A DNA stretch of 64,000 nt, taken from assembly GCA_012728415.1 (NCBI GenBank), contig JAAYFD010000032.1:59512-123511 (forward strand), read 5' to 3'. This DNA is from Gammaproteobacteria bacterium. Its GTDB lineage: Bacteria; Pseudomonadota; Gammaproteobacteria; Pseudomonadales; Pseudomonadaceae. The position numbers and the translations under genes are program-made. Below the pieces are notes generated by a model. The model was given only the letters and a program-made list of their open reading frames with translations, did no database searches and had not been told where the DNA came from. Positions 17,085 to 64,000 of this stretch are shown here, piece by piece (positions within the stretch are counted from its first letter, which is position 1; the number at the start of each line of letters is the position of its first letter).

Positions 17085-17090
17085 ATCCCG

Positions 17091-18624: not shown

Positions 18625-18637
18625 CCCTGTGCGGCGA

Positions 18638-46666: not shown

Positions 46667-46689
46667 ACCGGCAAGCAAAGGAGTGCTGC

Positions 46690-47151
46690 ATGAAACAACC
46701 CGCCGTCTACCTGTTGTGCAGTAAACCCAATGGCACACTCTACATCGGTGTCACATCCAATCTTGTACAGCGGATATGGCAACATCGTGAAGGTGTAGTC
46801 GAGGGATTCACTCGTCGATACGGCCTAAAGACACTGGTCTGGTATGAGCAGCACGAAACCATGCAGAGTGCCATCAGCCGCGAAAAAGCATTGAAGAAAT
46901 GGAATCGCTCCTGGAAGCTGCGTCTGGTGGCAGAGCGCAATCCACAATGGCTCGACCTGTGGCCAGAAATCACCGGCCAAGAGTCCGGGTTTTCAGGTAC
47001 GCCGTCATTTCGGGAAGCCTCAGGCGCACCGCTATCCCGGAACGATTCAGGTGGCTCGTCATTCCCGAGTGCTTTTATCGGGAATCCACGCTCACCCTTG
47101 GATTCCCGCCTTCGCGGGAATGACGGCATTATTGAGGTAGACGAGCAATGA
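46690..47151 (+). CDS. GIY-YIG nuclease family protein with repeat-derived C-terminus
   Basis: VYLLCSKPNGTLYIGVTSNLVQRIWQHREG; C-terminus ...DSRLRGNDG encoded by palindromic repeat. Confidence 0.88.
   Translation: MKQPAVYLLCSKPNGTLYIGVTSNLVQRIWQHREGVVEGFTRRYGLKTLVWYEQHETMQSAISREKALKKWNRSWKLRLVAERNPQWLDLWPEITGQESGFSGTPSFREASGAPLSRNDSGGSSFPSAFIGNPRSPLDSRLRGNDGIIEVDEQ
47058..47124. repeat. REPIN-like inverted doublet of palindromes
   Basis: GTCATTCCCG..CGGGAATCCA-N10-TGGATTCCCG..CGGGAATGAC. Confidence 0.75.
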
Positions 47152-48461
47152 GCGGGTTTAAGCCGTACCCGGCGTATAAGGATTCCGGGGTGGAGTGGTT
47201 GGGGGAGGTGCCTGATCACTGGGTCATGGGCTCTCTGAAAAACATGGCGCTAATACGCAATGGTAAAGACTATAAGGAAGTTGAAAGCTCAGATGGAGAA
47301 TACCCCGTAATTGGTTCTGGAGGGCAGTTCACGACTGCCACCCACTACCTTTATGAGGGCGAGTCTGTTTTGCTTGGTCGTAAGGGGACCATTGATAAAC
47401 CACTATATATCAATGGCAGGTTCTGGACGGTGGATACCATGTTTTACACTGAGATCTCCAGAGAGACCTGCGCAAAGTTTTTTTATTATTGTTCTCTCAC
47501 CATTCCATTCGATTACTACTCGACCAGCACGGCGCTGCCGAGCATGACGCAGGCTGATCTGCTAAACCATCCAACTGCAATCCCGAGCAAGCTAGAGCAA
47601 ACCCAAATCGCCCGTTTCCTCGACCACGAAACCGCCCGCATCGATGCGCTGATCGAAGAGCAGCGGCGCCTGATAGAACTGCTCAAGGAAAAGCGCCAGG
47701 CCGTCATCTCCCACGCCGTCACCAAAGGCCTCGACCCGACGGTGCCGATGAAAGACTCCGGCGTGGAGTGGCTGGGCGAGGTGCCGGCGCATTGGGAGGT
47801 TGGTGGTCTGACACGGTTTATTGGACCTGTTGTTGATTATCGCGGCAGAACCCCCAAAAAGGTTGATGAAGGTGTTTTCTTAGTCACGGCGAGAAATATT
47901 CGAAATGGTCGAATCGACTACGAGGCATCCCAAGAGTACGTTGATCCTGCATCTGCTGAATCGTTATTGGCAAGAGGAAGGCCGGAGGTAGGGGATTTGC
48001 TATTTACTATGGAGGCGCCTCTCGGACAGGTTGCTTTGATTGATCGAACCGACATAGCGCTTGCTCAGCGAATTGTTAAGTTCCGAGGTGAGCCGCATGT
48101 GATGAAGAACCACTACCTGATGTATTGGTTGATGAGCACTGCGTGTCAGGCTCGATTGGAAACTCTAGCGACAGGCTCCACGGCTCTTGGTATCAAAGCA
48201 AGCAAATTAGGAATGATCGAGTGCCTTGCACCGCCTCTAAAGGAGCAAGATGAGATTGTTTCGTATATCACGCAAGAAACCTCCAAGATCAATACGCTTG
48301 TTTCTGAAGCGGAGCATGTAATCCTATTACTGCAAGAACGCCGCTCCGCCCTAATCTCCGCCGCCGTCACCGGCAAAATCGATGTCCGCAACTGGCAGCC
48401 ACCTGCCGCGCAATATCCAGTGGGTGATGCCCACAACCGCACTGAGCCGGAGGCCGTATGA
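47148..48461 (+). CDS. hsdS: type I restriction-modification specificity subunit HsdS
   Basis: two half-repeats DSGVEWLGEVPDHW / DSGVEWLGEVPAHW; two TRD halves; ATGA overlap with the GIY-YIG gene. Confidence 0.92.
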   Translation: MSGFKPYPAYKDSGVEWLGEVPDHWVMGSLKNMALIRNGKDYKEVESSDGEYPVIGSGGQFTTATHYLYEGESVLLGRKGTIDKPLYINGRFWTVDTMFYTEISRETCAKFFYYCSLTIPFDYYSTSTALPSMTQADLLNHPTAIPSKLEQTQIARFLDHETARIDALIEEQRRLIELLKEKRQAVISHAVTKGLDPTVPMKDSGVEWLGEVPAHWEVGGLTRFIGPVVDYRGRTPKKVDEGVFLVTARNIRNGRIDYEASQEYVDPASAESLLARGRPEVGDLLFTMEAPLGQVALIDRTDIALAQRIVKFRGEPHVMKNHYLMYWLMSTACQARLETLATGSTALGIKASKLGMIECLAPPLKEQDEIVSYITQETSKINTLVSEAEHVILLLQERRSALISAAVTGKIDVRNWQPPAAQYPVGDAHNRTEPEAV

Positions 48462-49399
48462 GCGCTCCAGGTCGCAGCATTCGTCTGTTTCTGGTGGACG
48501 GCACACCTAATGGCCTGATCACCGCGGAGATCATGAACTGGACTGGGCATGCCCTGACGAGCCCACGAAGCAAGCTGACCGAGCTGGTACAGCGACCGGA
48601 ATGCGGGCGTACCGGGATCTACTTTCTGGTTGGGCCCGATCCGGAAAACGCCATGCGTCCGCTGGTGTATATCGGCGAGTCGGACGATGTAGCCAAGCGG
48701 CTGCGGCAACATAACCGACCCGAGGATCAGGGTGGCAAGGATTTCTGGGAAAAGGTCTGCCTGATCACCAGCAAGGACCAGAACCTGACCAAGGCCCACG
48801 TCAAATATCTGGAAAGCCAGTTGATCAACCTGGCCAAGGGATCGGGCCGTTGCGGACTGGTCAATGGCACGGCCCATGACTACTCGATGCTGCCGGAGTC
48901 AGATCAGGCCGACATGGCATTCTTTATTGAGCAGGTCCGCACCATACTGCCGGTGTTGGGATTCGACTTTCTGCGCGATAGGCAAACGCTCAGTACGCAG
49001 TTGCACTCTGCCTCTGCCGCTGGCCAGAGCGGTGTGACATTCGAAATGGAGCTCGCCAAGTACGGGATTCGTGCTCTGGCCAGGGAAGTGGATGGCGAGT
49101 TTGTTGTGCTTGCCGGTAGCCAGGCCCGTGAAGCCTGGGTGGGCGGCACCAACTACGCCAGCTATCGCCCCCTGTATGAACAGCTGACGGCTGATGGCGT
49201 GTTGGTGAAAGATGCAACGGGCAAGGTCAGTTTTGCACAGGATCAGGCCTTTTCCAGCCCCAGCGCAGCGGCTGCTGTGATTTCCGGTCGCGCTGCCAAT
49301 GGCCGAATTGTCTGGCGGGAGCAGTGCAGCGGCAAGTCTTATGGGGATTGGCAGAGTGCGATACTGGAGGCGCAGACTCCTGAGCTGGTGGAGGAGTAG
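48458..49399 (+). CDS. GIY-YIG nuclease family protein with DUF4357-like C-terminus
   Basis: GIYFLVGPDPENAMRPLVYIGESDDVAKRLRQHN; C-terminal SYGDWQ. Confidence 0.8.
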   Translation: MSAPGRSIRLFLVDGTPNGLITAEIMNWTGHALTSPRSKLTELVQRPECGRTGIYFLVGPDPENAMRPLVYIGESDDVAKRLRQHNRPEDQGGKDFWEKVCLITSKDQNLTKAHVKYLESQLINLAKGSGRCGLVNGTAHDYSMLPESDQADMAFFIEQVRTILPVLGFDFLRDRQTLSTQLHSASAAGQSGVTFEMELAKYGIRALAREVDGEFVVLAGSQAREAWVGGTNYASYRPLYEQLTADGVLVKDATGKVSFAQDQAFSSPSAAAAVISGRAANGRIVWREQCSGKSYGDWQSAILEAQTPELVEE

Positions 49400-49401
49400 T
49401 T

Positions 49402-49503
49402 ATGCCGAATGGCAATGAAGCCCGACTCCAGCAAGCGATAACCGATGCCATGGATGCTTTCAGGTTGGCGGGCGAGTTCAGTACACAGGAGGTGTGCAAT
49501 TGA
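49402..49503 (+). CDS. 33-aa small ORF between GIY-YIG/DUF4357 and fic
   Basis: MPNGNEARLQQAITDAMDAFRLAGEFSTQEVCN; overlaps fic start. Confidence 0.35.
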   Translation: MPNGNEARLQQAITDAMDAFRLAGEFSTQEVCN

Positions 49504-50633
49504 AATTTGAAGAATTCCAGTCCGGTACCTGGGTGCAGCAATATCGCTACAAGAGCTTCAGCCCTGTCAAGGTTAATCGGGAATGGTGCTGGGAAAATCC
49601 GGAAATCAATACATTACTGGAGCGTGCTTCCCGCGCTTTGGCGGAGTTGGATGCTTTTACGTTGATTGTTCCGGATGTAGATCTGTTTATTCAGATGCAC
49701 ATCACCAAAGAAGCCAATAATTCATCGCGGATTGAAGGCACCCAAACGGAAATGGATGAGGCTGTTCTGGACAGCAGCCAGCTTGCGCCGGAAAAGCGTG
49801 ACGATTGGCAGGAAGTGCAGAATTATGTTCAGGCAATCAACGAAGCGGTGGATGAGTTGCAGCGATTGCCTTTGTCCAATCGCCTGCTCAAATACACCCA
49901 CAGCATTCTGATGCAGGGCGTGCGTGGCGAGCACAAAACCCCGGGCGAGTTTCGGCTGTCGCAAAACTGGATAGGCGGCAGCAGTCTGGCCGATGCGGCA
50001 TTTATTCCTCCCCACCAGAGTGAGGTCCCGGAGTTGATGGGTGACCTGGAGCTGTTCTGGCACAACGATCAAATCAACGTGCCAGAGCTGGTGCGTATTG
50101 CCATCAGTCATTATCAGTTTGAAACCATTCACCCCTTTCTTGATGGTAACGGCAGGATTGGCCGGTTACTCATAGCGCTGTATCTGGTAAACAAGGGCTT
50201 GCTGCGCAAACCATCGCTGTACCTCTCGGATTTTTTTGAGCGAAACCGGGCCAGCTATTACGACGCGCTTATGCGGGTGAGAACGTCCAACGATCTGCTG
50301 CACTGGGTGAAATTCTTTCTTTCCGCGATCATCGAAACTGCGGGTAAAGGTAAGCAAACGTTTGAAGGGATTCTGTCCCTGCGCCGTGAGGTAGATGCAC
50401 AGATATTGAGTTACGGCAAGCGGGCGGAAAATGCGCAGATCCTTTTGAAGCGCCTATACAGGCGACCTGCGGTGACTGCCATGCAGGCTGCCGAAATCCT
50501 TGATTTGAGCCACCAGAGCGCTTCGGCGCTACTCAAAAAGATGACCGAGGATGACATATTGGACGAAATAACAGGTTATCAGCGTAATCGGGTCTTTGTG
50601 TTTACGCGTTACCTGCAGCTATTCCGTAGTTAG
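49494..50633 (+). CDS. Fic family protein (class II, auto-inhibited type)
   Basis: HPFLDGNGRIGR Fic motif; N-terminal SSRIEG inhibitory (S/T)xxxE(G/N) motif; C-terminal winged-HTH-like region. Confidence 0.92.
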   Translation: MQLKFEEFQSGTWVQQYRYKSFSPVKVNREWCWENPEINTLLERASRALAELDAFTLIVPDVDLFIQMHITKEANNSSRIEGTQTEMDEAVLDSSQLAPEKRDDWQEVQNYVQAINEAVDELQRLPLSNRLLKYTHSILMQGVRGEHKTPGEFRLSQNWIGGSSLADAAFIPPHQSEVPELMGDLELFWHNDQINVPELVRIAISHYQFETIHPFLDGNGRIGRLLIALYLVNKGLLRKPSLYLSDFFERNRASYYDALMRVRTSNDLLHWVKFFLSAIIETAGKGKQTFEGILSLRREVDAQILSYGKRAENAQILLKRLYRRPAVTAMQAAEILDLSHQSASALLKKMTEDDILDEITGYQRNRVFVFTRYLQLFRS

Positions 50634-50650
50634 GGCAAGCGGGACGAGCG

Positions 50651-50742
50651 AGTGTAAGTTTGCTCCCAATAACCTTACACTTGGATTTTCATATGTAAAC
50701 TTCCTGTCTTTATCCTTACATATGGCTATCTGTGTGTAAGGG
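50651..50742. promoter_or_regulatory. array of five TGTAAG-type half-sites upstream of hsdR
   Basis: AGTGTAAG/CTTACACT and CATATGTAA/TTACATATG inverted repeats plus TGTGTAAGG. Confidence 0.55.
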
Positions 50743-50853
50743 TATGCGGGTCAATGGGGGTCGGAAGGGCCTTCAGGTAAGGGTTAGATAATATCGCGCT
50801 GTATCAGAGTTCCTGTTGGATCTGGGCGTGGAGGATTCGTAGAAGGAATCGCT

Positions 50854-53800
50854 ATGAGTGACAGTAGGGAACACCAGTTCCAGCAAGACATCATCACCGC
50901 CATGACCGCGCAGGGTTGGCTTACCGGCCCCGCCAGCGGCTACGACCGCACCACGGCCCTGTATTCCGAAGACTTTCTCGGCTACTTCAAGGAGGCCTGG
51001 CCGGAGCGTTGGGAGAAGTTCGCCAAGGCCAACCCGAACAAGCCGGAAGATGTGCTGGTGCAGAAGCTGGTGCGCGAACTGGAGCAGAGCGGCACCCTGG
51101 ATGTGCTGCGCCATGGTTTCAAGTTACCGGGCGTCAAGGTGGAGACCTGCAGTTTCAAACCCGACCACGGCATGAATCCGGATACCCTCAGGCGCTACCA
51201 GTGCAACCGCCTGCGGGTGGTACCGGAGGTGTCTTACTCGCCGCACTACCGGGAGGGCGAGTACAACCCGCGCCTGGATCTGGTGTTGTTCGTCAACGGC
51301 ATCCCCACGGCCACGCTGGAGTTGAAAAGCGAGTTCAAGCAGAGCGTGGAAAACGCCAAGCGCCAGTATCGCTATGACCGCCCGGTAAAAGATCCGCTGA
51401 CCCGTAAGCCCGAGCCGCTCCTGACCTTCAAGCGTGGTGCGCTGGTGCATTTTGCCGTGGGCCAGAGCGAGGTGGCGATGACCACCAAACTGGATGGCAA
51501 GGATACCTTCTTCCTGCCATTCAACATGGGCAGCCTGGATGGCGGCGCTGGCAACCCGCCGCCACCGGATGACAGCCAATACGCGACCGGCTATCTGTGG
51601 AACCAGCTGTTTCAGCCGGACGCCTGGTTGAAGGTGCTGGGCCGCTTCCTGCACCTGCAGAAGACCGTGAAGGAAGATTTCGACGGCAGGAAGACCACCC
51701 GGGAAACCATGATCTTCCCGCGCTACCACCAGTGGGACGTGGTCAACAGATTGATCGAGACGACCCGCGCCGAGGGACCGGGGCAGCGCTACCTGATCCA
51801 GCACAGCGCCGGCTCTGGCAAGTCCAACTCCATTGCCTGGACGGCGCATCAGCTGGCTGCCCTGTATGGGGATGATGGTCAGAAGCTGTTCAGTTCGGTG
51901 ATTGTCATTACCGACCGCACCGTGCTGGACAAACAGTTGCAGGACACCATCTACCAGTTTGAGCATGCCCAGGGCGTAGTCAGGTGCATCACCCGGGATA
52001 TCGGTAACAAGAGCAAGTCCGAGCAGCTCGCCGAAGCGCTGGCCGAACAGACGCGCATCATCATCGTCACCATCCAGACCTTTCCGGCACTGTTCGACGC
52101 GCTGGACAAGCATCCCCAGCTGGCCAGCGGGCACTATGCGGTGATTGCCGACGAGGCGCACTCCTCGCAAACCGGCTCATCGGCCAGCAAGCTCAAGCAG
52201 ATTCTCGGCAGTGACGCCTCCCGTACCGATAACGAGGAGCCGGAAGAGATCAGCGCTGAAGAGCTGCTGGATGCCGCGGTGGCCGCCCGTGCGCCCAATG
52301 AGCGCATCAGCTATTACGCCTTTACCGCCACGCCCAAGGCCAAGACCCTGGAGCTGTTCGGTCGCGAGCCTGACCCAACGCGGCCACGCGGCCCTGACAA
52401 CAAGCCCGAGGCATTTCATCTGTACTCCATGCGCCAGGCCATCGAGGAGGGTTTTATTCTCGATGTGCTGCAGAACTACACCACCTACAGCACCGCCTGG
52501 AAGATCGCACATCCGGACGGTGGCGACGAGGAAGTGGACTCGAAGAAGGCGCGGCAGAAACTCGCCCGCTGGGTGCGCCTGCATCCGTACAACATCAGCC
52601 AGAAGGTTGAGGTGATCGTCGAGCACTTCCGTGCCAACATCCGTCACCTGCTCGACGGCCAGGCCAAGGCCATGGTGGTCACCAGCAGCCGGCAGGAGGC
52701 GGTGCGCTACCAATTAGCGATGATCGCCTACGTCAAGGAGATGGGGTACACCGACGTGCATCCTCTGGTAGCCTTCTCCGGCAGCGTGCTGCCCGATGAG
52801 GTAATTCCCGAAGAGGTGACCGAGAACAGCAGCCTGCTCAATGCCGGGCTGAACGGGCGGGACCTGGCGGACGCCTTCGACACCCAGGACTTCAACGTGA
52901 TGATCGCCGCCAACAAGTACCAGACCGGCTTCGATCAACCCAAGCTGTGCGCCATGTACGTGGACAAGAAGCTGCAGGGCGTGGACTGTGTGCAGACCCT
53001 GTCGCGGCTGAACCGCCTGTTTCCGGGCAAGCAGACCTTTATCCTCGACTTCTTCAATGAGCCGCAGGATATTCTCGATGCCTTCCTGCCGTACTACACC
53101 AAGGCCGAGCTGACCGATGTCACTGATCCGCAGCTGATCTACGATCTGCAGAAGAAGCTGGATGCCGAGGGCATCTACTACTGGTCAGAGGTAGAGGCCT
53201 TTGCCCTGGCATTCTTCGATCCCAAAGCCCCGGCCAGCAAGCTCAGCTACTACTGCGCCCCGGCCAGGGAGCGGTTTGCCAAGCGCTACGCCTTCAGCGT
53301 CGAGGCGAGGCAGCAAGCGCTGGAATACAAGCGCACCGCCGAAGCCAACGGCGACAGCGCCGGCCTTAAGAGCGCCGAACATGCCCTGAAGGAAGCGGGT
53401 GAGCAGATCGATCAGCTCGACCTGTTCCGCAAGAACCTGCAGAGCTTCGTGCGGCTGTATGAGTTTCTCTCCCAGATCATTCCCTATGAAGACCGCGAGC
53501 TGGAGCAGCTCTGTGTGTATGCAAAACACTTGCATCCGCTGCTGCGCGCAGATCGGCTGCAGGAAGACGACGTGGATGTCGGTGAGTTGCAGCTGACTCA
53601 TTACCGGCTGACCAAGCGCGCCGAACATAAGCTGCGGCTGGATGAGGAAGGCGGAGACTACACGCTGGACCCGGCAACCGCTGTGGGTAGCGGCAAGGCC
53701 CATGACCCGGAAAAGAAACGCTTGTCCGAGATCATCGAGGCACTGAACGAGATCTTCGGTGCCGAGGTCAGCGACGAAGACCAGCTGCAGTTCCTCACCG

Positions 53801-54051
53801 GCATCGCCAATCGCATCAGCCGCCAGGAGGACGTGATGGCACAGGTCAACAACCACTCGGTCGAGCAGGTGATGCACGGCCTGTTCCCCAAGCGGGTGCT
53901 GGATACCGTACTGGACGCTATGACCGACAACGAAAAAATGTCGCTGGAAGTGCTGGATAACGAGACCAAGAGCCGGGCGTTTGCGCTGGTGATTTTGAAG
54001 ATGCTGAAGACGGCAGCCAGCTTCAATGAGGCCGGCATGCGCAGCATCTGA
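50854..54051 (+). CDS. hsdR: type I restriction endonuclease subunit HsdR
   Basis: SAGSGKSNSIAWTAHQL helicase motif I; IADEAHSSQTG; FTATPKAKTLELFG; nuclease region LDLVLFVNGIPTATLELKSE. Confidence 0.95.
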   Translation: MSDSREHQFQQDIITAMTAQGWLTGPASGYDRTTALYSEDFLGYFKEAWPERWEKFAKANPNKPEDVLVQKLVRELEQSGTLDVLRHGFKLPGVKVETCSFKPDHGMNPDTLRRYQCNRLRVVPEVSYSPHYREGEYNPRLDLVLFVNGIPTATLELKSEFKQSVENAKRQYRYDRPVKDPLTRKPEPLLTFKRGALVHFAVGQSEVAMTTKLDGKDTFFLPFNMGSLDGGAGNPPPPDDSQYATGYLWNQLFQPDAWLKVLGRFLHLQKTVKEDFDGRKTTRETMIFPRYHQWDVVNRLIETTRAEGPGQRYLIQHSAGSGKSNSIAWTAHQLAALYGDDGQKLFSSVIVITDRTVLDKQLQDTIYQFEHAQGVVRCITRDIGNKSKSEQLAEALAEQTRIIIVTIQTFPALFDALDKHPQLASGHYAVIADEAHSSQTGSSASKLKQILGSDASRTDNEEPEEISAEELLDAAVAARAPNERISYYAFTATPKAKTLELFGREPDPTRPRGPDNKPEAFHLYSMRQAIEEGFILDVLQNYTTYSTAWKIAHPDGGDEEVDSKKARQKLARWVRLHPYNISQKVEVIVEHFRANIRHLLDGQAKAMVVTSSRQEAVRYQLAMIAYVKEMGYTDVHPLVAFSGSVLPDEVIPEEVTENSSLLNAGLNGRDLADAFDTQDFNVMIAANKYQTGFDQPKLCAMYVDKKLQGVDCVQTLSRLNRLFPGKQTFILDFFNEPQDILDAFLPYYTKAELTDVTDPQLIYDLQKKLDAEGIYYWSEVEAFALAFFDPKAPASKLSYYCAPARERFAKRYAFSVEARQQALEYKRTAEANGDSAGLKSAEHALKEAGEQIDQLDLFRKNLQSFVRLYEFLSQIIPYEDRELEQLCVYAKHLHPLLRADRLQEDDVDVGELQLTHYRLTKRAEHKLRLDEEGGDYTLDPATAVGSGKAHDPEKKRLSEIIEALNEIFGAEVSDEDQLQFLTGIANRISRQEDVMAQVNNHSVEQVMHGLFPKRVLDTVLDAMTDNEKMSLEVLDNETKSRAFALVILKMLKTAASFNEAGMRSI

Positions 54052-55087: not shown

Positions 55088-55435
55088 TCAGTGGGGCGGC
55101 CGCCAGTCTGGGTGAGTTCGGATCAGGCGGGCCGCAAAACGCGGGTGAATATGGCATTGCTCGGCCAGGTCGTGGCGATCCACAAAACCATGCACCAGCA
55201 GATAGTCAGGCGAGCAGCCCAGCAGGCCGGCGAGCTTTTCCAGCCACTCCATTGCCTGCGGCGGCGAATCACTCGCCTCGTGCAGCGCCTTGATGATCTC
55301 CAGGCGGTGGGTGCGGATTTCCTGCAGCAACTCACCGGGAGGCTCATGGTCGGCTTCCCAGGTCAGGCGTCCATCTTCCAGCACCAACTGGATGCCTTCA
55401 GCTTGGGCCAGCTCCAGCAATTGCGCGGCACTCAT
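55088..55435 (-). CDS. TubC N-terminal docking domain-like protein
   Basis: AAQLLELAQAEGIQLVLEDGRLTWEADHEPPGELLQEIRTHRLEIIKAL. Confidence 0.55.
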   Translation of the reverse strand: MSAAQLLELAQAEGIQLVLEDGRLTWEADHEPPGELLQEIRTHRLEIIKALHEASDSPPQAMEWLEKLAGLLGCSPDYLLVHGFVDRHDLAEQCHIHPRFAARLIRTHPDWRPPH

Positions 55436-57428
55436 ATCTCACCCCGGAATTTGGCAGGTGCTGCGACATTTGCGACTTTTGCGACAAGCCCCGTGGCTGC
55501 TGGGTTTGGCTGTTGCGACAGCGTCGCGACAGGCTGCGACAAATGCGGCGTTGGGGTGTCGCTGTCGCAGCGCGTCGCAATCGTGTCGCAGACCTTCTGG
55601 CCTTGAGCTGCGCGGGTTGTCGCAAAATTCGCAGTTGTCGCAGAGGGTGCGAGATTGAAGGTCTTGCCATCGACGGTGTGCAGCCAGCGGTGCTCAACCA
55701 GTACGGCCAAGATCGAGTCACGCTGCTTGGCGCTTTTACGGATGAAGGGCGGGCCTTCACGTTGCAGGGTGCGTGCATCGAAGCTATGCCAATGATTTGT
55801 CAGCAACCAGTCCAGCAGACGCTGAGCTTGGAGCAACTGCGGATCAACCTTGCTCGGATTGGTCAGGCGCAGAGCCTCGCCCAAATACCAGCGCACCAGC
55901 ACGGCAGCTCGGTCGATCAGATCGGCACCAATACGCTCGCGGCCTTCTACCACGGCAAATATTCCCGCAATGCGCAGCAGGTTCTCGGCCCCCTTGGCGG
56001 CGGTCGGTTTTATCTCCTGCATGCCGCCACCCTGGCCAAGCTGGCGTTCGATGGCATCGTACTCAGCAATCCACAGATCCAAGGCGGCAGTCTCCAGCAC
56101 CAAAATGGGCGGGGCCAACTCCCCGCGCTCATCCTTGATGGGCTCCTGCGCCAACAGGCAGGCCATGCGCTGCCAGTAGCGACCGAGGCGAGGATCACGG
56201 GACGGGTCGGCGTCACGGTAGAAGCGCGTGCCGGCCAGTGACTCCGGCCAGGCGATTAGGAAGCGGCGAGAAAGCCTTGCCCCTGCATGAGCGGATTGCT
56301 CAGCACCTCGGTGGCGACGATGGGCTGGATCATCAGATGGACACTCAGCCGGCAGCCGAAGCGGGCCGAGCTTTCTCCCTCTGATGCACGGGTGCGGCTG
56401 ATCGGTGCGCCGTCCCAAAGCTTCGACAGGCCAGCCACGCTCTTGAGCGCGTTCTCAGGCTTGGCGGCATGGCCGCCAAAGAACTGCCCGCCTTCGTCAC
56501 TGAACAGACCTTGTGAAGGGTGGCCACGCAGCAGGGACTTTTGCAGCCCCTCCAGGGTCGGCTCTTCGGAGAGGATGAACGGCAACGGCGGTGCCTCGGG
56601 CTCCAGCAGTTTGCCCAGATCATTGGCCACCGATTCGGGGTCGCCTTTAGCCTTGTCGAGAATGTTGGCGCGGGCTTTCTGGTAGGCATCGCGCTGGTCG
56701 CGGTACTCCTTGGCATCGACCTTGTACTGTTCCAGCAATTCGCGCTGATGCTGCTGGTGCGCCTGCAATGCCAGACGATCCGCTGCCGATTTGCGGTCGC
56801 CCGACTCAGCCACCGTCAGCGCGAACAACGACAGCGGCTGGTCTGCGGTGATGATCCCGAGCGGCGAATAGCAGCCTTTTACCCGGCCACCGGAGAGAAA
56901 GCGCTTGCTGCCGTCGGGGTGGATGCGTTGCACATTCACCAGCTGGCCATTGAGTGTCAGCGGCACCAGTAGCACGTTGCCCTTCTGGCGCAGGTTGTAG
57001 GGGCGGCAGCCCTTGGCGATCAGGTAGGGGTGGCCGGGATCGGCACGGCGGGCATCACACCACAGGCGGTTGACATATTCTGCCGCTGCTTGATTGCGCT
57101 GGCGCCTCTCCACTTCATGCTGACGCTTGGCCTGCTCGTTACGTTTGCGGATCAGCTCAGCCTGCAGCGAATCAGCTGGCTTGCGAGCGCTCCAGGTGTG
57201 CCAGTGGCCGCCATCCTTCCAAGTGCCGTACCAGCCCGATGCGATGGCGTCCACGTGCAGACAGTAGACACCATTCAAGGTGCCAGGCTTGTCGCCGGGG
57301 ACGTGGAAGCGGTGTATCTGGCCATCTCCCTCTGGTACGAAATCGATCTTGCCAATTACGCTTTGCATAGAGTCACGGAAAAGAATCGCCGCATCGGAAA
57401 GGAGGGGGAAGTAAAGAGCGCGGCCCAT
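55432..57428 (-). pseudogene. DUF3987/toprim-primase-like replication protein, frameshifted
   Basis: ORF 56256-57428 (N part, ...SNPLMQGQGFLA) and ORF 55432-56418 (RRFLIAWPESLAGTRFY...) join in frame if one nucleotide is restored near 56270. Confidence 0.75.
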
Positions 57429-57649
57429 TAGACGTCACGCTCTTTGATTTTTGTGGCCAGCCAGGCGTTCAGCTCGGCGATAACGTAGTAGGCCGTGGCT
57501 TGGCGACTGTCACTGAACTTTATGGGTTTGGGGAAGGTCGGGTCTTTCTTGCGCAGCTTGTCCAGCCCGGAGCGGGTCTGGCCAATGACCTTGCAGACCT
57601 CAGTCTGGGGGATGAGTGCTTGATCAATCTTTGAGTGAACTGGGTGCAT
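57428..57649 (-). CDS. alpA: AlpA family transcriptional regulator / excisionase-like
   Basis: LIPQTEVCKVIGQTRSGLDKLRKKDPTFPKPIKFSDSRQATAYYVIAELNAWL. Confidence 0.85.
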   Translation of the reverse strand: MHPVHSKIDQALIPQTEVCKVIGQTRSGLDKLRKKDPTFPKPIKFSDSRQATAYYVIAELNAWLATKIKERDV

Positions 57650-57724
57650 CTGAGCGCCTCCGTATTGGGTACGGAGGCAATTTAATTGGAGGGTGGGGTG
57701 AGGCCTAAACCGTCATAAATGCGC

Positions 57725-58207
57725 TTATGATGGCGGTAAAATATCCCCTGCCAGTATTCTTAGAGTATCATCTGGCAGAATCTCTATGCCCTCCCGATAG
57801 GTTTTGTATGCGCGCTCTACCGTCCGGTCGCTGATAGACAGGTGCCCTGCAGCGTCTGAAACGGCGCATTCCCAGCTAATGCCTTTACGCATTTGCAGGA
57901 TTACGATGCAAGCTGCGCGCAGGTCTCGTTCTGTATTGTCAGGGCGGTTGTATTTGCCTTTGATCGCTTTCAGGCCGAGGGCTTGGTCGGCGCTGTGCCC
58001 TTGCAGGATCTGGGCAAAAACGTGCTGCATCAGCGAGTGAAGTAGGGCTGGGTCAAAATCAATCTCGTCACGCATCCGCTCGTGGAACAGCTCTATCACC
58101 TTTTTAGACAGTTCAGGGTCGAAGTTGCCTTTGAGGTACTGGATGACGTTGTACAGGCCTTCGGGCGTAACCTCGTCCCATTTGCGCTTTCCTGGCATTT
58201 GCATCAC
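57725..58207 (-). CDS. hypothetical island protein
   Basis: intact 160-aa ORF between alpA and integrase remnant. Confidence 0.6.
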   Translation of the reverse strand: MMQMPGKRKWDEVTPEGLYNVIQYLKGNFDPELSKKVIELFHERMRDEIDFDPALLHSLMQHVFAQILQGHSADQALGLKAIKGKYNRPDNTERDLRAACIVILQMRKGISWECAVSDAAGHLSISDRTVERAYKTYREGIEILPDDTLRILAGDILPPS

Positions 58208-58836
58208 TAGGCCCCTTGTTTAAGCTCGACAAGATTGCTGGTAGCCAGCTTGTCCAGATGGTCGGCATACCACTGCATCATCACCTTGCGCTGCTTCAGG
58301 TAGGTGCTCTTGTCGTAATTGCACGCAAAAACTCCATCCACTCCATTGGCATGATGCCGGTGTATGGCCGCTTGCCGAATATGGGGAATACGTGCTTTTC
58401 AAGTGCACCAATGGTGCGGACCGCAGTACCTTCGCTCCAGGTTTTGCACTTGGCTGCATACCATTCGCGAGCCAGGTGCTCAAAGGTGTTGTTCGCAGCT
58501 TCGAGTTCTGCGGCTCGCTTGGTCGCCATGATACTGCCGTCCTTCGCAGTGTTGTTACGTAGCTCACGGACTTTCCGACGGGCCTGTTCACCAGTCAGTC
58601 GATGGTCGCCAGTGCCATAGCCGCCCAGCCCTAGCCATGACCATTTACTTACCGTCTGCTTTTTTGTAGCGCAGCTGCCAAGATTTGGAGCCGTCTGGTT
58701 TGACGCGGAAGTACAAGCCGTCGCCATCCAGCTCGCGATACTCTTTTGCTTCGGGTGCCAGGCTGGCGAGTACGGTGTCGGCAAGTGGGCGGCGTTTGAT
58801 CTCGCTGCGTTTCATGCTTGTATCCCCGTGGTTCAA
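58208..58836 (-). pseudogene. P4-type tyrosine integrase, frameshifted and internally deleted
   Basis: N-term MKRSEIKRRPLADTVLASLAPEAKEYRELDGDGLYFRVKPDGSKSWQLRYKKADGK / frameshift / WSWLGLGGY...TPMEW-like MPMEWMEFLRA / then only the C-tail NYDKSTYLKQRKVMMQWYADHLDKL. Confidence 0.85.
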
Positions 58837-58967: not shown

Positions 58968-58998
58968 TTGGTGGAGCCGGGGGGATTTGAACCCCTGC
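58968..58998 (-). other. tRNA/tmRNA 3'-end fragment, proximal attachment site
   Basis: minus strand GCAGGGGTTCAAATCCCCCCGGCTCCACCA: T-loop and acceptor-CCA, but no full tRNA or ssrA body adjacent. Confidence 0.65.
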
Positions 58999-59114
58999 TT
59001 TGAAAGTCCACTGGCGGCCCATGCCAGTCATTACAGGGGTTTGCGGTTTCCTTTGCAGCCTTTGGCGGCATGTGGCGTCCTGCTCTTGGGCAAATACTGG
59101 GCAAACTTTAGGTT

Positions 59115-59792
59115 TTACGGCGCCATCTCACCAGCCAAGCAGAACATCTGGTTACGGCTACAGTTTTCCTGAAAAAACCGCTTTGCTCCCTTTCTGCAGT
59201 CTCTGTATCTCAAGCTGCCTGCTTTCTCGTTTGAGCAAACAGAGCTTGTATCAATCCTTGAACCAATCACATCATAGGAAAACCGGCCTGACGTTCGCGT
59301 CTTTCTTCCGCCTCTGCCCGACTGCACCGAATCCCAATACCAGGGGGCCCATTCTCTGTACCTGGTCGGTGCTTTTCTTGTCTGGGGTTTTGCCCGGCTT
59401 GTCATTGTTGGCGGTGGAATACTATTCACTGCACCTTTCGGCACATAGTTCTGATCATTGAAAACCGTCTGTTTTTTACCCGTGCCAGGCTGGTCTACCG
59501 GTTGCACCGCTCTTTCTATATGTAACTGCTTTGCAGGCTCTGCCATAACTGGCGCTTTTGCCTGTACCGGTTCCGGTGACCTGGCCACAGCCTGCATACG
59601 CTTCTGGACGGCTGCCTGTTCTTGGACTCGCCTTTGCTCTATCTGTTTCAGATCTTCCTGGTAAAACCACCAGCCGATTAGAGCTGCAATAGCCAATGTC
59701 ACCAGGCTTGAAATAATGATAGGTGTGTTTCTCTTTTTCGGCTTAGGTGCCAGCTGGTCCCGTTCTGTAACCCTTATTTCCATTGATACCAT
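59115..59792 (-). CDS. hypothetical single-TM prophage protein
   Basis: 225-aa ORF with TM TPIIISSLVTLAIAALIGWWFY. Confidence 0.5.
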   Translation of the reverse strand: MVSMEIRVTERDQLAPKPKKRNTPIIISSLVTLAIAALIGWWFYQEDLKQIEQRRVQEQAAVQKRMQAVARSPEPVQAKAPVMAEPAKQLHIERAVQPVDQPGTGKKQTVFNDQNYVPKGAVNSIPPPTMTSRAKPQTRKAPTRYREWAPWYWDSVQSGRGGRKTRTSGRFSYDVIGSRIDTSSVCSNEKAGSLRYRDCRKGAKRFFQENCSRNQMFCLAGEMAP

Positions 59793-59817
59793 CTTTCTGT
59801 AATTTTTCGGGTGATTA

Positions 59818-60087
59818 TCATCCCGCGTTTTGTTTGCCTGATGTTTCGTTTGCCTGGTCGTAGGCAGGGCTGGTCTGCCCTATTTCTGGCGCAACATTTC
59901 CCGTTGTCAGCCAAAAAGCCCAGTTTGGGTATAGCTTCCCAAGCTCTTCAATTTCTACGGCACCAAAGCGAGCCCGTCCCCGCTTTATGTTCTGCCAGCG
60001 TACATATTCTTTGCTGTTTGGTTTTGCCAGGTCTTCCAGGCTAGCCATACCAAGCAACAGCTTAGCTCTATCGGTTATATCCATCAT
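59818..60087 (-). CDS. putative phage repressor (DNA-binding)
   Basis: 89 aa, ITDRAKLLLGMASLEDLAKPNSKEYVRWQNIKRGRARFGAVEIEELGKLYPNWAFWLTTG; divergent from the prophage + strand genes. Confidence 0.6.
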   Translation of the reverse strand: MMDITDRAKLLLGMASLEDLAKPNSKEYVRWQNIKRGRARFGAVEIEELGKLYPNWAFWLTTGNVAPEIGQTSPAYDQANETSGKQNAG

Positions 60088-60134
60088 TCATCTTATACAA
60101 ACAAATTATCAAAATATCAGCCTACAGGCTTGCA

Positions 60135-60177
60135 TGTACTGCGTACACATGTACAATGGACATATGTAGATAGTACA
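60135..60177. promoter_or_regulatory. prophage operator array
   Basis: TGTACtgcGTACA, TGTACA, GTACA half-sites between divergent repressor and + strand genes. Confidence 0.5.
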
Positions 60178-60225
60178 TCAGCCATTACCGGCCATTACCG
60201 GCAAGTCAAGTTTAAGGGGTTTTTC

Positions 60226-60450
60226 ATGCAACAGCTAGCAATCAAGGATGCGGACCAAGTGCAAAAGCTTTTGATCGCTCCCCCGGTCATGCCCTGGCGC
60301 GATTTTGCTGCATGGGTCCAGCTTTCTGATGACGTTGTTGAGCACTGGGTAAAGCGCGGCTATTTGCCAACCGTGAAAATCGGTCGTTACCGGATGGTGA
60401 ATATCGCTCTACTGACCCATCAATTGCTCAACGATGAATATGAGGTTTAA
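60226..60450 (+). CDS. small HTH/excisionase-like prophage protein
   Basis: MPWRDFAAWVQLSDDVVEHWVKRGYLPTVKIGRYRMVNIALLTHQLL. Confidence 0.6.
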   Translation: MQQLAIKDADQVQKLLIAPPVMPWRDFAAWVQLSDDVVEHWVKRGYLPTVKIGRYRMVNIALLTHQLLNDEYEV

Positions 60451-60453
60451 GCC

Positions 60454-61008
60454 ATGACTATTATGAGCCGTTCCGAAGTCCTAGAAAGCCTGCGCACTTA
60501 CCTGATGATGATGCAGCACCAGGTAAAGCAAGTGGGTAAAGCTGCCAAAGGTACTTTTAATTTCGATTTCTACTTGCGTGCAAGTAAGGCGTTTATAAAA
60601 AAGCGTGATCTTTATTTAACGCTTGGCGTTTTGACCAATGACGACTATGAAGACTTGCACCGCCTGCACCAGGTGATTCTTGATGAAATGGAGGTTGCAA
60701 GTCGTGACCAGTTCCCAGAAAAACGCGCTTTATTCTTCTCGGCACCTTACCGAAACGCTCCGAAAGATGCGCAAGGCTATCCACTGCAGCCGGTGCAGCT
60801 GTGTAATTTGCTGGAGCAAGAAATATTTAAAGGATTACCAGCGTTCTGCGAGCCTGGAAAAGCACCTTCCAACATCCAGGCATCAAAATACATTCCGTTC
60901 TTCACACTCAACGAATTTGAGGGGTTCAAACAGATTGCCCCGCGGTTCTCTGACAATTGGCGTCCAACGCTCACCGTTACAAAAAGAATTCTTTTACATA
61001 CTCGATGA
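60454..61008 (+). CDS. hypothetical inovirus-like protein
   Basis: 184-aa ORF collinear with the prophage. Confidence 0.55.
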   Translation: MTIMSRSEVLESLRTYLMMMQHQVKQVGKAAKGTFNFDFYLRASKAFIKKRDLYLTLGVLTNDDYEDLHRLHQVILDEMEVASRDQFPEKRALFFSAPYRNAPKDAQGYPLQPVQLCNLLEQEIFKGLPAFCEPGKAPSNIQASKYIPFFTLNEFEGFKQIAPRFSDNWRPTLTVTKRILLHTR

Positions 61009-61022
61009 AGTAGAGGCCAGCT

Positions 61023-61253
61023 ATGAAAGGCACTGAAAAGATCAAAATTCCACCCCGTCAAAAGCAGATTGACGATAAAAACAGGCGTTTTTACGTTATG
61101 GCCCCGTCCAGCGTCAAGTTGGCACTGGAAAAGGAAGCATTTAACCGCGGTACTGACCTTTGGACCCTGGGCGGCCAGGTGCTTTGCCAATGGATTGCGG
61201 CGGGCTTCCCGGATCAGATCGTCAGCCGTGACCCTGAGACAGCGGAGGAGTAA
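61023..61253 (+). CDS. hypothetical small prophage protein
   Basis: 76-aa ORF MKGTEKIKIPPRQKQIDDKNRRFYVMAPSSVKLALEKEAF. Confidence 0.55.
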   Translation: MKGTEKIKIPPRQKQIDDKNRRFYVMAPSSVKLALEKEAFNRGTDLWTLGGQVLCQWIAAGFPDQIVSRDPETAEE

Positions 61254-61293
61254 CCAGGTGAACGCTTTTACTGACTTTCAAACACCTTCGATC

Positions 61294-61456
61294 CTTTCCC
61301 CTCTGCCCGTCGCGTCGTGTCGCTCGCGTGACCCGTCCGGCGCTTTTCTTAAGGCTGTAAAGGGCGCGAAGCGGCGTAGCGAACCCTTTACAGCCTTAAG
61401 AAAGGTGCCAGGGTTCACAAGCGAGCAGCACGAAACGCGACGGGTAGAGGGGAAAG
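61294..61456. repeat. nested large inverted repeat (candidate filamentous phage ori/packaging hairpin)
   Basis: outer 22-nt arms CTTTCCCCTCTGCCCGTCGCGT/ACGCGACGGGTAGAGGGGAAAG (1 mismatch); inner perfect 20-nt arms TTTCTTAAGGCTGTAAAGGG/CCCTTTACAGCCTTAAGAAA. Confidence 0.85.
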
Positions 61457-61553
61457 CCCCCCTGCCCCGAGCCGAGAAGAAGCGAGCGCTTTTAAGACTT
61501 TCCGAATCCGCTGGGTTTCAGTGTCAAGTGGACCGTGGAATAAATGGGAGGGC

Positions 61554-61586
61554 CCCAAATAAAACGGCTTTGTCGTTTTATTTGGG
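61554..61586. repeat. hairpin
   Basis: CCCAAATAAAACG-gctttgt-CGTTTTATTTGGG. Confidence 0.85.
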
Positions 61587-61728
61587 AGGTACCCGTTTAT
61601 GCCGCGAAAGCCACTTGTACACCCCCACCAATAAACACGCTCCCGGCTGGGGTCGGGTAATCATGGCCGCCAGGCCATTATTCCCCGCACCCCTGCCACG
61701 TGGCGAACGCAGGGATAACAAGGGACAG

Positions 61729-61747
61729 CGTCCCTTGGTTTTGATTC
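61729..61747. repeat. short hairpin
   Basis: CAAGGGAC-agc-GTCCCTTG. Confidence 0.7.
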
Positions 61748-61779
61748 ACGGGGTTTGGGGGACCCGGATGCTTATTAAT

Positions 61780-61828
61780 CGAATTAAAACGGCTTCCGTT
61801 TTGATTCGATTAATAAGCAGCTGGAGCG
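61780..61828. repeat. large hairpin
   Basis: GCTTATTAATCGAATTAAAACG-gcttc-CGTTTTGATTCGATTAATAAGC. Confidence 0.85.
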
Positions 61829-61977
61829 TTAATCAGCTATTGCACGGACTGCTTGTAAAGAAGCCGCCGAAGGCGACATTACCGCTTTTAATGCAGAACT
61901 GAAACAGTTTTAACCAACCGCTGAATGATCAGCATTACCTGTAAGAAAGCCTGTTAAATCAGGCAGGAGAAAGAAAA

Positions 61978-62313
61978 ATGCAACTTCAAGCCATGTTGTT
62001 GAGCGTCCAGAAAACCATTGTTGACCGCAACATTTATGCAAAGGCGTTTATTGCCTTGCCAGCTGATAACGAAAAAGACGCAGTCAGCAGCGTGATGCAG
62101 CTGGGCATCCAGGAAGACAAAGCTGAAGAGGTTTTTAAACAGGTTGTTGATAACAACCTGAAGCTGGGCGAGCTGGTCAACGTGGGCGTAACCATTGTCC
62201 GCGGTGCACAGAACAGCGTAAAGCAGGTAGTGACCTCTATCACCAGTGTACAGCGTCCAGCGCAGCAGCCAGCATCACAACGTGATGTTCCATCAAAGTC
62301 TGAACAAAAGTAA
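61978..62313 (+). CDS. putative ssDNA-binding (gpV-like) phage protein
   Basis: 111 aa, position directly upstream of coat genes; assignment by synteny only. Confidence 0.45.
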   Translation: MQLQAMLLSVQKTIVDRNIYAKAFIALPADNEKDAVSSVMQLGIQEDKAEEVFKQVVDNNLKLGELVNVGVTIVRGAQNSVKQVVTSITSVQRPAQQPASQRDVPSKSEQK

Positions 62314-62326
62314 TTGAGGATTTTTA

Positions 62327-62527
62327 GTGAATATTCTTGTATGTGACCAACCTTTTGACCTGAGCGCCGGAGCTGCAATGTGCCCTGGTCAACTTGGTAC
62401 GGTTGCATATGAGGGTAACCCGGCAAATGCCGGATTAACCTGGCAGGAAGTAGAAGAGTTACAGGACGGTGTTCTGGTTTTATTTGCTGCCGTATTTGGT
62501 TTCCTGGTACTCAGGAAGCTGCTTTAA
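62327..62527 (+). CDS. small membrane protein, putative minor coat protein
   Basis: GTG start; C-terminal TM LVLFAAVFGFLVLRKLL. Confidence 0.6.
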   Translation: MNILVCDQPFDLSAGAAMCPGQLGTVAYEGNPANAGLTWQEVEELQDGVLVLFAAVFGFLVLRKLL

Positions 62528-62545
62528 CTTTAAGAGGTATTTCTT

Positions 62546-62746
62546 ATGAAAAATCTTATGAAGCGCGGCATTGCCGCATCTGTTGCCACTGGTGCCGTGA
62601 TCTCCGGAAGTGCTTTTGCAGCTGTGCCTGCAGATGCCCTTGATGCGTTGACTGAAGCATCCTCTGATGTGGGAACTATCGGCTGGGCCGTGTTCGCTGT
62701 CATTATTGCCGCAATGGCTTTCAAGTACATGCGCCGAGCGCTGTAA
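62546..62746 (+). CDS. filamentous phage major coat protein (gpVIII-like)
   Basis: signal peptide ...GSAFA, acidic N-terminus, TM TIGWAVFAVIIAAMAF, basic tail KYMRRAL. Confidence 0.88.
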   Translation: MKNLMKRGIAASVATGAVISGSAFAAVPADALDALTEASSDVGTIGWAVFAVIIAAMAFKYMRRAL

Positions 62747-62750
62747 ACAA

Positions 62751-62781
62751 CAAAGGGCGCTCAAATGGGCGCCCTTTTTCT
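62751..62781 (+). terminator. intrinsic terminator after the major coat gene
   Basis: AAAGGGCGCtcaaatgGGCGCCCTTTTTC. Confidence 0.85.
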
Positions 62782-62856
62782 TTCATTGTTGTGTGCCTTG
62801 TTCCGCTGGGGAGCGGAAGGCACACACCAATGCAAGAACAACCTGGGGCAAATTCT

Positions 62857-62928
62857 ATGAGTATTCAGTGGTTTTATTTGATTGTCGTAACGCTCGCGTT
62901 TTGGGCGTTGTTCTTCGGGAGAATCTGA
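62857..62928 (+). CDS. 23-aa membrane mini-protein, candidate minor virion protein
   Basis: MSIQWFYLIVVTLAFWALFFGRI; not in the ORF track. Confidence 0.5.
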   Translation: MSIQWFYLIVVTLAFWALFFGRI

Positions 62929-62930
62929 GC

Positions 62931-63092
62931 ATGTGGGAATCACCGAATCTGCTATCAGATCCAGCGCCGGTAAATCTTGTCAAGCGCAATGTGCAGAACC
63001 GCTTGGGCATCAATGCGGCTCAGTCTGGCAATGTTGGGCATGTATTGTATGAAGTAAAGCGATTACAGAAGCGGCAAAAGGGCGAGGGTTAG
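62931..63092 (+). CDS. 53-aa hypothetical prophage protein
   Basis: MWESPNLLSDPAPVNLVKRNVQNRLGINAAQSGNVGHVLYEVKRLQKRQKGEG. Confidence 0.5.
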   Translation: MWESPNLLSDPAPVNLVKRNVQNRLGINAAQSGNVGHVLYEVKRLQKRQKGEG

Positions 63093-63096
63093 GGAT

Positions 63097-64000
63097 ATGA
63101 GATATTTATTGTTATGTCTGCTGTGTGTTTTTGGCTCTAGTGCGTTTGCTGCAAAAATCCAACAGCCACCTATTAATGGATTTATTGTTACATATGTTAG
63201 CGATAAGAATATACCTATCAAGGTTGGAGAGCGTGCTACTACTCAGGCTGCTTTTTGTAATAGACTTTTTACATATTCTAAATCAGCTCATGATCGTGAA
63301 GAAAAACCTGCTCCGCATATTACCTATACTTATAAAGTTGAAGAAGTTCAGTATGGGGCGCTTGGAATTTATGGGACTTTTTCCCCCGGCGAGGGTGGTT
63401 GTGCAACTTTTGGAACTTTAACAACCTTAAATACTTTTAACCCTCCTGAGACGGTCGATGAAACTTATTACGATCATTTGCATTTATCACGTGGAGCTGT
63501 TTGTAGTGATTTGAGTGATCTTGTTTATGATCCAGATACAAAACAGAATGTTTGCTATGTTGATCCACCGAAACCACCGGAGCCAAAAGAATGTAAAGCC
63601 GGTGAGGAAATTTTACGTTATGGATTTTCAGCGGCTGGTGGTGAGGTTAATTACAATCCGAATGTTTGTTATGAAGGTTGTAATTACAACTATGAAAGCC
63701 GTTCCGGTGCAGGCATTGAAATGCCGGATTATCCTGGCATCTTTAAATATAACGTCTATTACAAATCAGATGGTTCCGAATGTTCCGCCCCGACTCCGCC
63801 GGTAACTCCGCCAGATATTCCTGATCCACCTGAAGAGCCTTGTCCTGAAGGTTGGGCCTTGGGTGCTGATGGTTCGACCTGTTTTAGAAAGCCTGATCCT
63901 GATGATGGTGGTACTGGCGGCACTGGTGGTACCGGTGGCGATGATGGTGGTACCGGTGGCGGTGGTGATACCGGTGGCGGTGATGGTGGTACTGGCGGCA
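63097..64000 (+). CDS. pIII-like attachment/minor coat protein, truncated by window end
   Basis: MRYLLLCLLCVFGSSAFAAKIQQPP...Cys-rich domains...GGTGGTGGTGGDDGGTGG Gly-rich linker; open for 301 codons to the window edge; missing from the ORF track. Confidence 0.8.
   Translation, partial: MRYLLLCLLCVFGSSAFAAKIQQPPINGFIVTYVSDKNIPIKVGERATTQAAFCNRLFTYSKSAHDREEKPAPHITYTYKVEEVQYGALGIYGTFSPGEGGCATFGTLTTLNTFNPPETVDETYYDHLHLSRGAVCSDLSDLVYDPDTKQNVCYVDPPKPPEPKECKAGEEILRYGFSAAGGEVNYNPNVCYEGCNYNYESRSGAGIEMPDYPGIFKYNVYYKSDGSECSAPTPPVTPPDIPDPPEEPCPEGWALGADGSTCFRKPDPDDGGTGGTGGTGGDDGGTGGGGDTGGGDGGTGG

What the first reader, a model, noticed from the sequence alone, without database searches (positions are those of the whole stretch)
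59115..64000. Filamentous (inovirus-like) prophage abutting the defense island
Divergent repressor-like gene, xis-like gene, hairpin-rich noncoding region, SSB-position gene, signal-peptide-bearing major coat protein, terminator, mini-proteins and a Gly-rich pIII form a recognisable inovirus order. Most non-structural ORFs have no obvious family from reading, suggesting a divergent lineage. Rep and Zot/pI are expected to the right of the window.
Basis: partly seen in the sequence, partly recalled or inferred. Interest (0 to 1): 0.7.

Follow-up and report, generated by a model that had tools for sequence, protein, structure and literature searches.

The report
Pf1-like filamentous prophage in tmRNA gene
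The right end of the window is the left half of an ordinary but divergent filamentous phage, a relative of Pseudomonas phages Pf1 and Pf4, sitting in the tmRNA gene next to a defence island; its one unusual feature is a folded non-coding DNA element, conserved across unrelated Pseudomonas phages and plasmids, that looks like a start site for copying single-stranded DNA.

Summary
The finding is right. Window 58968-64000 is the left half of a Pf1-like inovirus prophage (Pf-tmRNA integration type). The contig ends at 64000, inside the Gly-rich pIII repeat, so nothing lies to the right. The other half is at the end of contig C7: pIII C-terminus, pVI, Zot/pI, Pf-type Rep (54% identical to Pf1 ORF430), tyrosine integrase, then the 28-bp tmRNA core that also stands at 58968-58995. 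CoaB matches Pfam Phage_Coat_B; the SSB-position protein models as an OB fold. The morphogenesis genes are of the Pseudomonas phage 62-2 type joined to a Pf1-type Rep, a known mosaic. The bin holds two further Pf-like prophages.

The unexpected part is the hairpin-rich gap (61254-61977; z = -15 as ssDNA). It contains a ~100-nt covarying element ending GGGATRACAAGGG-loop-CCCTTGG. In 199 same-family genomes its core lies beside a Pf-type Rep in 68 of 71 cases. It also occurs in inoviruses with unrelated Reps and on Pseudomonas plasmids, so it is probably not a Rep-specific origin; a host-recognised complementary-strand start site fits best (inferred). Novelty: new member of a known kind.

The parts
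58968..58995 (.). Left att core, 28 bp of the 3' end of the tmRNA gene (TTGGTGGAGCCGGGGGGATTTGAACCCC)
   Evidence: Identical at the right end on C7 next to the complete tmRNA gene; 27 of its 28 bases match the Pf-tmRNA attP of PMC7549136
59086..59108 (+). Direct repeat TGGGCAAAnnnTGGGCAAA just inside the left end; arm-type integrase sites inferred
   Evidence: Equivalent repeats inside both ends of prophages A and B; the binding role is inference
59115..59792 (-). Membrane-anchored accessory protein, 225 aa, conserved Cys-containing C-terminal domain; function unknown
   Evidence: PHROG 7381 E=2.7e-19; relatives in 21 Pf-like loci; model with one long helix and a C-terminal domain, no PDB match
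59818..60087 (-). Repressor C-like regulator, 89 aa
   Evidence: PHROG 147 transcriptional regulator 6.5e-20; hit in Pf4 2e-28
60226..60450 (+). XisF4-like excisionase/regulator, 74 aa
   Evidence: 48% to the Pf4 71-aa homologue; PHROG 1864 2.4e-23
60454..61008 (+). Lineage-specific early protein, 184 aa
   Evidence: 43% to prophage C only; no family
61023..61253 (+). Small early protein, 76 aa
   Evidence: Relatives in prophages B and C and a few Pf-like loci
61294..61456 (+). Hairpin HP1, about 160 nt
   Evidence: Single-strand fold; the same long hairpin with changed arm sequences in prophage C and Pseudomonas sp. A-1
61525..61617 (+). Hairpin HP2, 93 nt
   Evidence: z = -7.6 as ssDNA; similar sequence in prophage B
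61641..61738 (+). Conserved ssDNA element ending in GGGATAACAAGGGACAGCGTCCCTTGG (61712-61738); proposed host-read complementary-strand start site
   Evidence: z = -4.4; distribution and covariation of relatives
61769..61818 (+). Hairpin HP4, about 24-bp palindrome, seen only in this prophage
   Evidence: z = -10.4; no match in relatives
61850..61889 (+). 40-nt non-coding stretch conserved in prophages A, B and C
   Evidence: 90-92.5% identity
61978..62313 (+). ssDNA-binding protein (gene V position), 111 aa
   Evidence: PHROG 15465 4.4e-11, the family of the gp5-like protein of phage 62-2; AlphaFold OB-fold order, pLDDT 82; PDB matches mostly SSB/PriB
62327..62527 (+). gp7-like minor coat protein, 66 aa
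   Evidence: PHROG 4800 1.1e-15, the family of 62-2 and 42-1 gp7-like proteins
62546..62746 (+). Major coat protein CoaB with signal peptide
   Evidence: PF05356 Phage_Coat_B 4.2e-16
62752..62777 (+). Terminator-like hairpin after coaB
   Evidence: 11 pairs followed by a T-rich tail
62857..62928 (+). 23-aa hydrophobic mini-protein
   Evidence: ORF read directly; function inferred from position only
62931..63092 (+). 53-aa ORF, no relatives found
63097..64000 (+). pIII/CoaA adsorption protein, N-terminal part with signal peptide and Gly-rich repeat, cut by the contig end
   Evidence: PHROG 815 and 4352; the C-terminal part on C7 hits PHROG 4352 and the TspB C-terminal domain

Best explanation
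Window 58968-64000 is the left half of a temperate Pf1-like filamentous phage of roughly 9.5 kb. Its tyrosine integrase joined a 28-bp attP to the 3' end of the host tmRNA gene, which stays whole. A repressor C / XisF4-like switch controls excision. After excision the Pf-type initiator (on C7) nicks the circle for rolling-circle replication; the OB-fold SSB coats the viral strand; CoaB, the gp7-like protein, pIII, pVI and the Zot/pI ATPase assemble and extrude the virion. Identity and gene functions rest on homology; an active life cycle is inferred. In the non-coding gap, the ~100-nt covarying element at 61641-61738 is most likely a site on the viral single strand that the host machinery uses to start the complementary strand (or early transcription from ssDNA); that part is inferred from its orientation, its independence of Rep type and its presence on Pseudomonas plasmids.
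For: CoaB PF05356 4e-16; other genes by PHROG profiles. Right half on C7 with Zot, DUF2523 pVI, Rep and integrase. Rep 54% to Pf1 ORF430, with the SIYNK motif whose tyrosine is essential in PAO1 Pf (PMC4863604). Identical 28-bp cores at both ends, matching the published Pf-tmRNA attP. Same gene order in Pf-like prophages of other Pseudomonadaceae and in phage 62-2. SSB fold. Element: 68 of 71 genomic copies within 9 kb of a Pf-type Rep, 67 upstream on the same strand in two distance classes; covariation 43 double-changed cells against 13.6 shuffled; exact copies with G2P and Rep_1-like initiators and on plasmids.
Against: The C58-C7 join is not sequenced, and the bin mixes two genomes. No induction data. 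For the element: prophage C and a third of the Pf-type Reps lack an exact copy; one plasmid family carries copies in both orientations; no enzyme is known to read it.
Confidence: 0.93

Rival explanations
1. The prophage is a cryptic remnant that no longer excises or makes virions.
For: No evidence of activity is available from sequence; a decayed P4-type element stands beside it.
Against: Every recognisable structural, replication and integration gene is an open frame, and both att cores and the tmRNA gene are intact.
Confidence: 0.2
2. The window end belongs with contig C3, not C7.
For: Both C3 and C7 begin inside a Gly-rich pIII repeat and run into a tmRNA gene.
Against: C20 and C3 share 24 of 58 18-mers of one repeat type while the window shares none with C3; window and C7 pIII pieces both hit PHROG 4352; C7 has the window's composition.
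Confidence: 0.04
3. The conserved element is the phage packaging signal, bound by the pVII/pIX-like proteins during virion assembly.
For: A hairpin on the viral strand in fixed orientation but in either of two places, shared across Rep types; in M13 the packaging signal is read by pVII and pIX (PMC10480500).
Against: It is also on plasmids with no inovirus genes around it, and it spans phages with different gp7-like families (PHROG 1147 and 4800).
Confidence: 0.25
4. The conserved element is the Rep nick site, ori(+).
For: Almost all genomic copies lie upstream of a Pf-type Rep on the same strand.
Against: Exact copies in phages with G2P-type (PF05144) and Rep_1-like initiators and on plasmids; prophage C lacks it although its Rep is 78% identical to that of A.
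Confidence: 0.15

Closest known systems
Pseudomonas phage 62-2 (OR621022) and Pf-like prophages with the same Zot type in Pseudomonas/Stutzerimonas (e.g. L027, L042, L062)
   Same: Same gene order; repressor, xis, SSB (PHROG 15465), gp7-like, CoaB, pIII, pVI, Zot (43%), Pf-type Rep and integrase
   Different: Diverged proteins, own pIII N-terminus, own early genes, different cargo (62-2 carries an OLD-like nuclease and a methyltransferase), much more hairpin-rich gap
Phages Pf1 and Pf4 (genus Primolicivirus)
   Same: Rep 54% to Pf1 ORF430, XisF4-like and repressor C-like switch, integrase 44% to Pf4, CoaB family, the conserved GGGATGACAAGGG hairpin
   Different: Zot, pVI, gp7-like and SSB belong to other families or are too diverged for BLAST
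Pf-tmRNA prophages of P. aeruginosa (Fiedoruk et al. 2020, PMC7549136)
   Same: Same integration site and matching attP core
   Different: Different host genus of the same family; sequences diverged
Single-strand initiation sites (ssi/sso) and ssDNA promoters such as Frpo
   Same: Folded hairpins on the entering single strand, independent of Rep, shared by ssDNA phages and transferred plasmids (general description in PMC5714925)
   Different: No match to any Rfam family; no description of this sequence found in the library; function untested

Membership tests
Pf1-like filamentous phages (Inoviridae) | Major coat protein of the Pf1 CoaB family with signal peptide | tested here: met
   PF05356 4.2e-16
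Pf1-like filamentous phages (Inoviridae) | Zot/pI assembly ATPase next to pVI and pIII | tested here: met
   On C7: PF05707 1.7e-18, DUF2523 8.4e-14, pIII C-terminus PHROG 4352; join with the window inferred
Pf1-like filamentous phages (Inoviridae) | PA0727-type rolling-circle initiator with SIYNK tyrosine motif | tested here: met
   54% to Pf1 ORF430 over its full length; SIYNK in the translation; role shown in PAO1
Pf1-like filamentous phages (Inoviridae) | Repressor C / Xis switch and tyrosine integrase with tRNA or tmRNA att | tested here: met
Pf1-like filamentous phages (Inoviridae) | ssDNA-binding protein upstream of the coat genes | tested here: met
   Fold-level evidence only: OB-fold model and SSB/PriB matches; no BLAST similarity to Pf1 gV
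Pf1-like filamentous phages (Inoviridae) | Production of filamentous virions or RF DNA | not testable with these tools
   Needs induction of the host
Genus Primolicivirus | Formal genus demarcation by genome similarity | not tested
   No formal criterion applied; best protein identities 43-54% suggest it lies outside
Pf-tmRNA integration type | 28-bp 3' end of tmRNA repeated at both ends | tested here: met
Single-strand initiation site / ssDNA promoter (element 61641-61738) | Conserved secondary structure on the single strand, supported by compensatory changes | tested here: met
   Tested on 21 Pf1-type copies; the window copy itself folds at z = -4.4
Single-strand initiation site / ssDNA promoter (element 61641-61738) | Independence from the Rep protein and presence on unrelated ssDNA-transferred replicons | tested here: met
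Single-strand initiation site / ssDNA promoter (element 61641-61738) | Primer or transcript start by host enzymes on ssDNA | not testable with these tools
   Needs an ssDNA-to-dsDNA conversion assay

The most novel reading that the evidence does not exclude
Filamentous phages with three unrelated initiators and several plasmid families of Pseudomonadaceae share one ~100-nt folded ssDNA element that host enzymes use to start the complementary strand (or to transcribe from ssDNA): a general, so far unnamed ssDNA entry signal of this bacterial family.
Probability: 0.5. Interest if true: 0.65.

Novelty: new member of a known kind. Interest (0 to 1): 0.4.

Why it matters
The prophage extends the Pf phages, best known from P. 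aeruginosa, to a small-genome member of the same family, and shows again that their switch, replication, structural and integration modules reassort. The conserved hairpin element gives a concrete, testable candidate for how Pf phages and Pseudomonas plasmids turn incoming single strands into double strands. No description of such a site for Pf phages was found in the open literature searched here. If it works as inferred, it would be a host-level step shared by phages and plasmids.

Tried and rejected
Looking right of the window: impossible, the contig ends at 64000. C3 start as the partner: rejected by repeat comparison. Element as Rep-specific ori(+), my first hypothesis: dropped when exact copies turned up in phages with G2P-type and Rep_1-like initiators. 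tblastn of CoaB and of the SSB alone against phages, and a viral-contig scan with the SSB alone: nothing; profiles were needed. Rfam: only sub-threshold matches in the window, among them the tmRNA fragment, and none for the element in Pf1, 62-2, 42-1, blackswan219-6 or pF047. Fourth prophage at C36: no phage genes there, the 28-bp match is spurious. Structure of the accessory protein 59118-59792: no PDB match. 16S search to name the host: no 16S in the bin. HP1 against phage records: nothing. Terminator reading of the element: most copies lack a T tract (the tail is GGTGTT).
Full report
1. Where the finding lies. The window is contig C58:59512-123511 of a 2.8-Mb, 68-contig bin (90% complete, 3.3% contaminated), and C58 ends exactly at window position 64000. 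The bin contains three PF05707 Zot genes, on C3 (two) and C7.

2. The missing half. C7, read from its end, starts inside a Gly-rich pIII repeat and continues with pIII C-terminus, pVI, Zot/pI, Rep, tyrosine integrase, att core and the complete tmRNA gene. C3 starts in the same way with another version, and C20 ends with a second left half. The C20 and C3 pIII repeats are the same (24 of 58 18-mers shared); the window shares a few 12- and 15-mers with C7 and none with C3. The pIII pieces of the window and C7 both hit PHROG 4352, at profile positions 102-277 and 304-477. C7 has the window's tetranucleotide composition. So prophage A is C58 plus C7 and prophage B is C20 plus C3. The join itself is not sequenced. 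Two tmRNA loci with the same neighbouring genes suggest that the bin mixes two related genomes.

3. Boundaries. The 28-bp sequence TTGGTGGAGCCGGGGGGATTTGAACCCC stands at 58968-58995 and at the C7 end next to the whole tmRNA gene. Fiedoruk et al. give a 28-bp tmRNA attP for the Pf-tmRNA type; its reverse complement matches this sequence over 27 bases (PMC7549136). Double TGGGCAAA-type repeats lie inside both ends of A and B; that they are integrase arm sites is my inference. Left of the core is a decayed P4-type element whose integrase pieces are frameshifted and show no catalytic domain, and then a type I restriction-modification/SoFic island.

4. Gene content. Repressor C-like, XisF4-like, SSB, gp7-like, CoaB (PF05356, 4e-16) and pIII are all recognised by profiles. 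Rep is 54% identical to Pf1 ORF430 over its whole length and carries SIYNK; the tyrosine of that motif is essential for Pf production in PAO1 (PMC4863604). Zot is closest to Pseudomonas phage 62-2 at 43%. The SSB-position protein is not similar to Pf1 gV by BLAST, but its model has the OB-fold order of strands, and the listed PDB matches are mostly SSBs, PriB and other OB-fold chains (best E 4e-3, probability 1.0). Among 80 genome loci with a Pf-type Rep, the gp7-CoaB-pIII-pVI-Zot set of this prophage co-occurs as a block in about two dozen; phage 62-2 has the same combination. The 184-aa and 53-aa ORFs, the 76-aa ORF for the most part, and the pIII N-terminus are lineage-specific. The accessory membrane protein 59118-59792 has relatives in 21 Pf-like loci; its fold and function are unknown.

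5. The hairpin-rich gap. As single-stranded DNA the gap 61254-61977 folds at -192 kcal/mol against -110 in shuffles (z = -15, 20 shuffles). It holds a ~160-nt hairpin (61294-61456; equivalents with changed arms in prophage C and in Pseudomonas sp. A-1), a 93-nt hairpin shared with prophage B, a 24-bp hairpin found only here, and a 40-nt stretch shared by A, B and C.

6. The conserved element. At 61712-61738 is GGGATAACAAGGG-ACAGCGT-CCCTTGG. The same hairpin is in Pf1 and Pf4. In 199 genomes of the host family the pattern (with a loop of 2-6 between the conserved arms) occurs 71 times, with no hit for the reversed pattern. Of these, 68 are within 9 kb of a Pf-type Rep; 67 are upstream on the same strand, at either 357-675 nt or 3960-5636 nt. 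So it sits in one of two places, between zot and rep or upstream of ssb, in fixed orientation. Upstream of it lies a hairpin that changes sequence but keeps pairing: 97% of cells paired, 43 double-changed cells against 13.6 in shuffles and at most 8 when slid (21 copies of the Pf1-type architecture). Other architectures of the upstream hairpin, including the window's own, were only folded singly.

7. What the element is not. I first took it for the Rep nick site. Exact copies then appeared in phages 42-1, 5a-DAzarov and blackswan219-6; the initiators of 42-1 and blackswan219-6 belong to PF05144 (G2P) and a Rep_1-like family, and other viral contigs repeat this. It also occurs in 102 plasmid records, nearly all Pseudomonas, in up to four places per record. 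On one ~50-kb plasmid family there are copies in both orientations with no inovirus genes around them. On pMP-R124 it lies directly after an ssb gene in the transfer region. Some plasmid hits are inoviruses themselves or carry integrated ones. In 246 genomes of the order it was seen only in the host's own family. Complementary-strand start is carried out by host enzymes without Rep (PMC5714925), so a host-read start site explains independence from Rep, limitation to one host family, viral-strand orientation and sharing with plasmids. A packaging signal remains the main rival. Prophage C and a third of the Pf-type Reps lack an exact copy, which no reading explains yet.

8. Verdict. The prophage is a new, fairly divergent member of a known kind. 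The element is the part a specialist would want to test.

Noticed in passing
L009 (G000:C3:1-20000) 12820-20000 and L010 1 to about 2330: A third Pf-like prophage (C), complete on one contig, beside tRNA-Pro(GGG); its Zot is 59% identical to Pf1 ORF424 and its Rep 78% identical to that of prophage A, but it lacks the conserved GGGATGACAAGGG hairpin.
   Followed up: partly
L016 (G000:C20) 1-4891 and L009 1-4411: A second tmRNA-integrated Pf-like prophage (B), split between two contigs in the same pIII repeat.
   Followed up: partly
L009 4385-7808 and L011 1-3021: Two versions of the tmRNA / ketoacyl-synthase-like / cmoA-like / cmoB-like neighbourhood in one bin, so the bin mixes two related genomes.
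   Followed up: partly
window 55435-58836: Decayed P4-type element: integrase frameshifted and without a catalytic domain, DUF3987 protein split in two overlapping ORFs.
   Followed up: partly
window 44295-54048: Defence island: type I restriction-modification (M, S, R), a SoFic-like protein and a PDC-S14 candidate.
   Followed up: partly
window 59118-59792: Widespread Pf-phage accessory family (PHROG 7381): membrane helix, QTVFNDxNYxP-type motif and a conserved Cys-containing C-terminal domain, near the repressor gene; unknown function, possibly superinfection exclusion (guess).
   Followed up: partly
L250 (NZ_CP077989) 20011+, 24000+, 34898-: Three copies of the conserved element, in both orientations, on a ~53-kb P. 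aeruginosa plasmid that also carries anti-CRISPR genes.
   Followed up: partly
window 62740-62916: Sub-threshold Rfam match to MicX (34.6 bits, gathering 75), probably chance, over the coaB terminator region.
   Followed up: no
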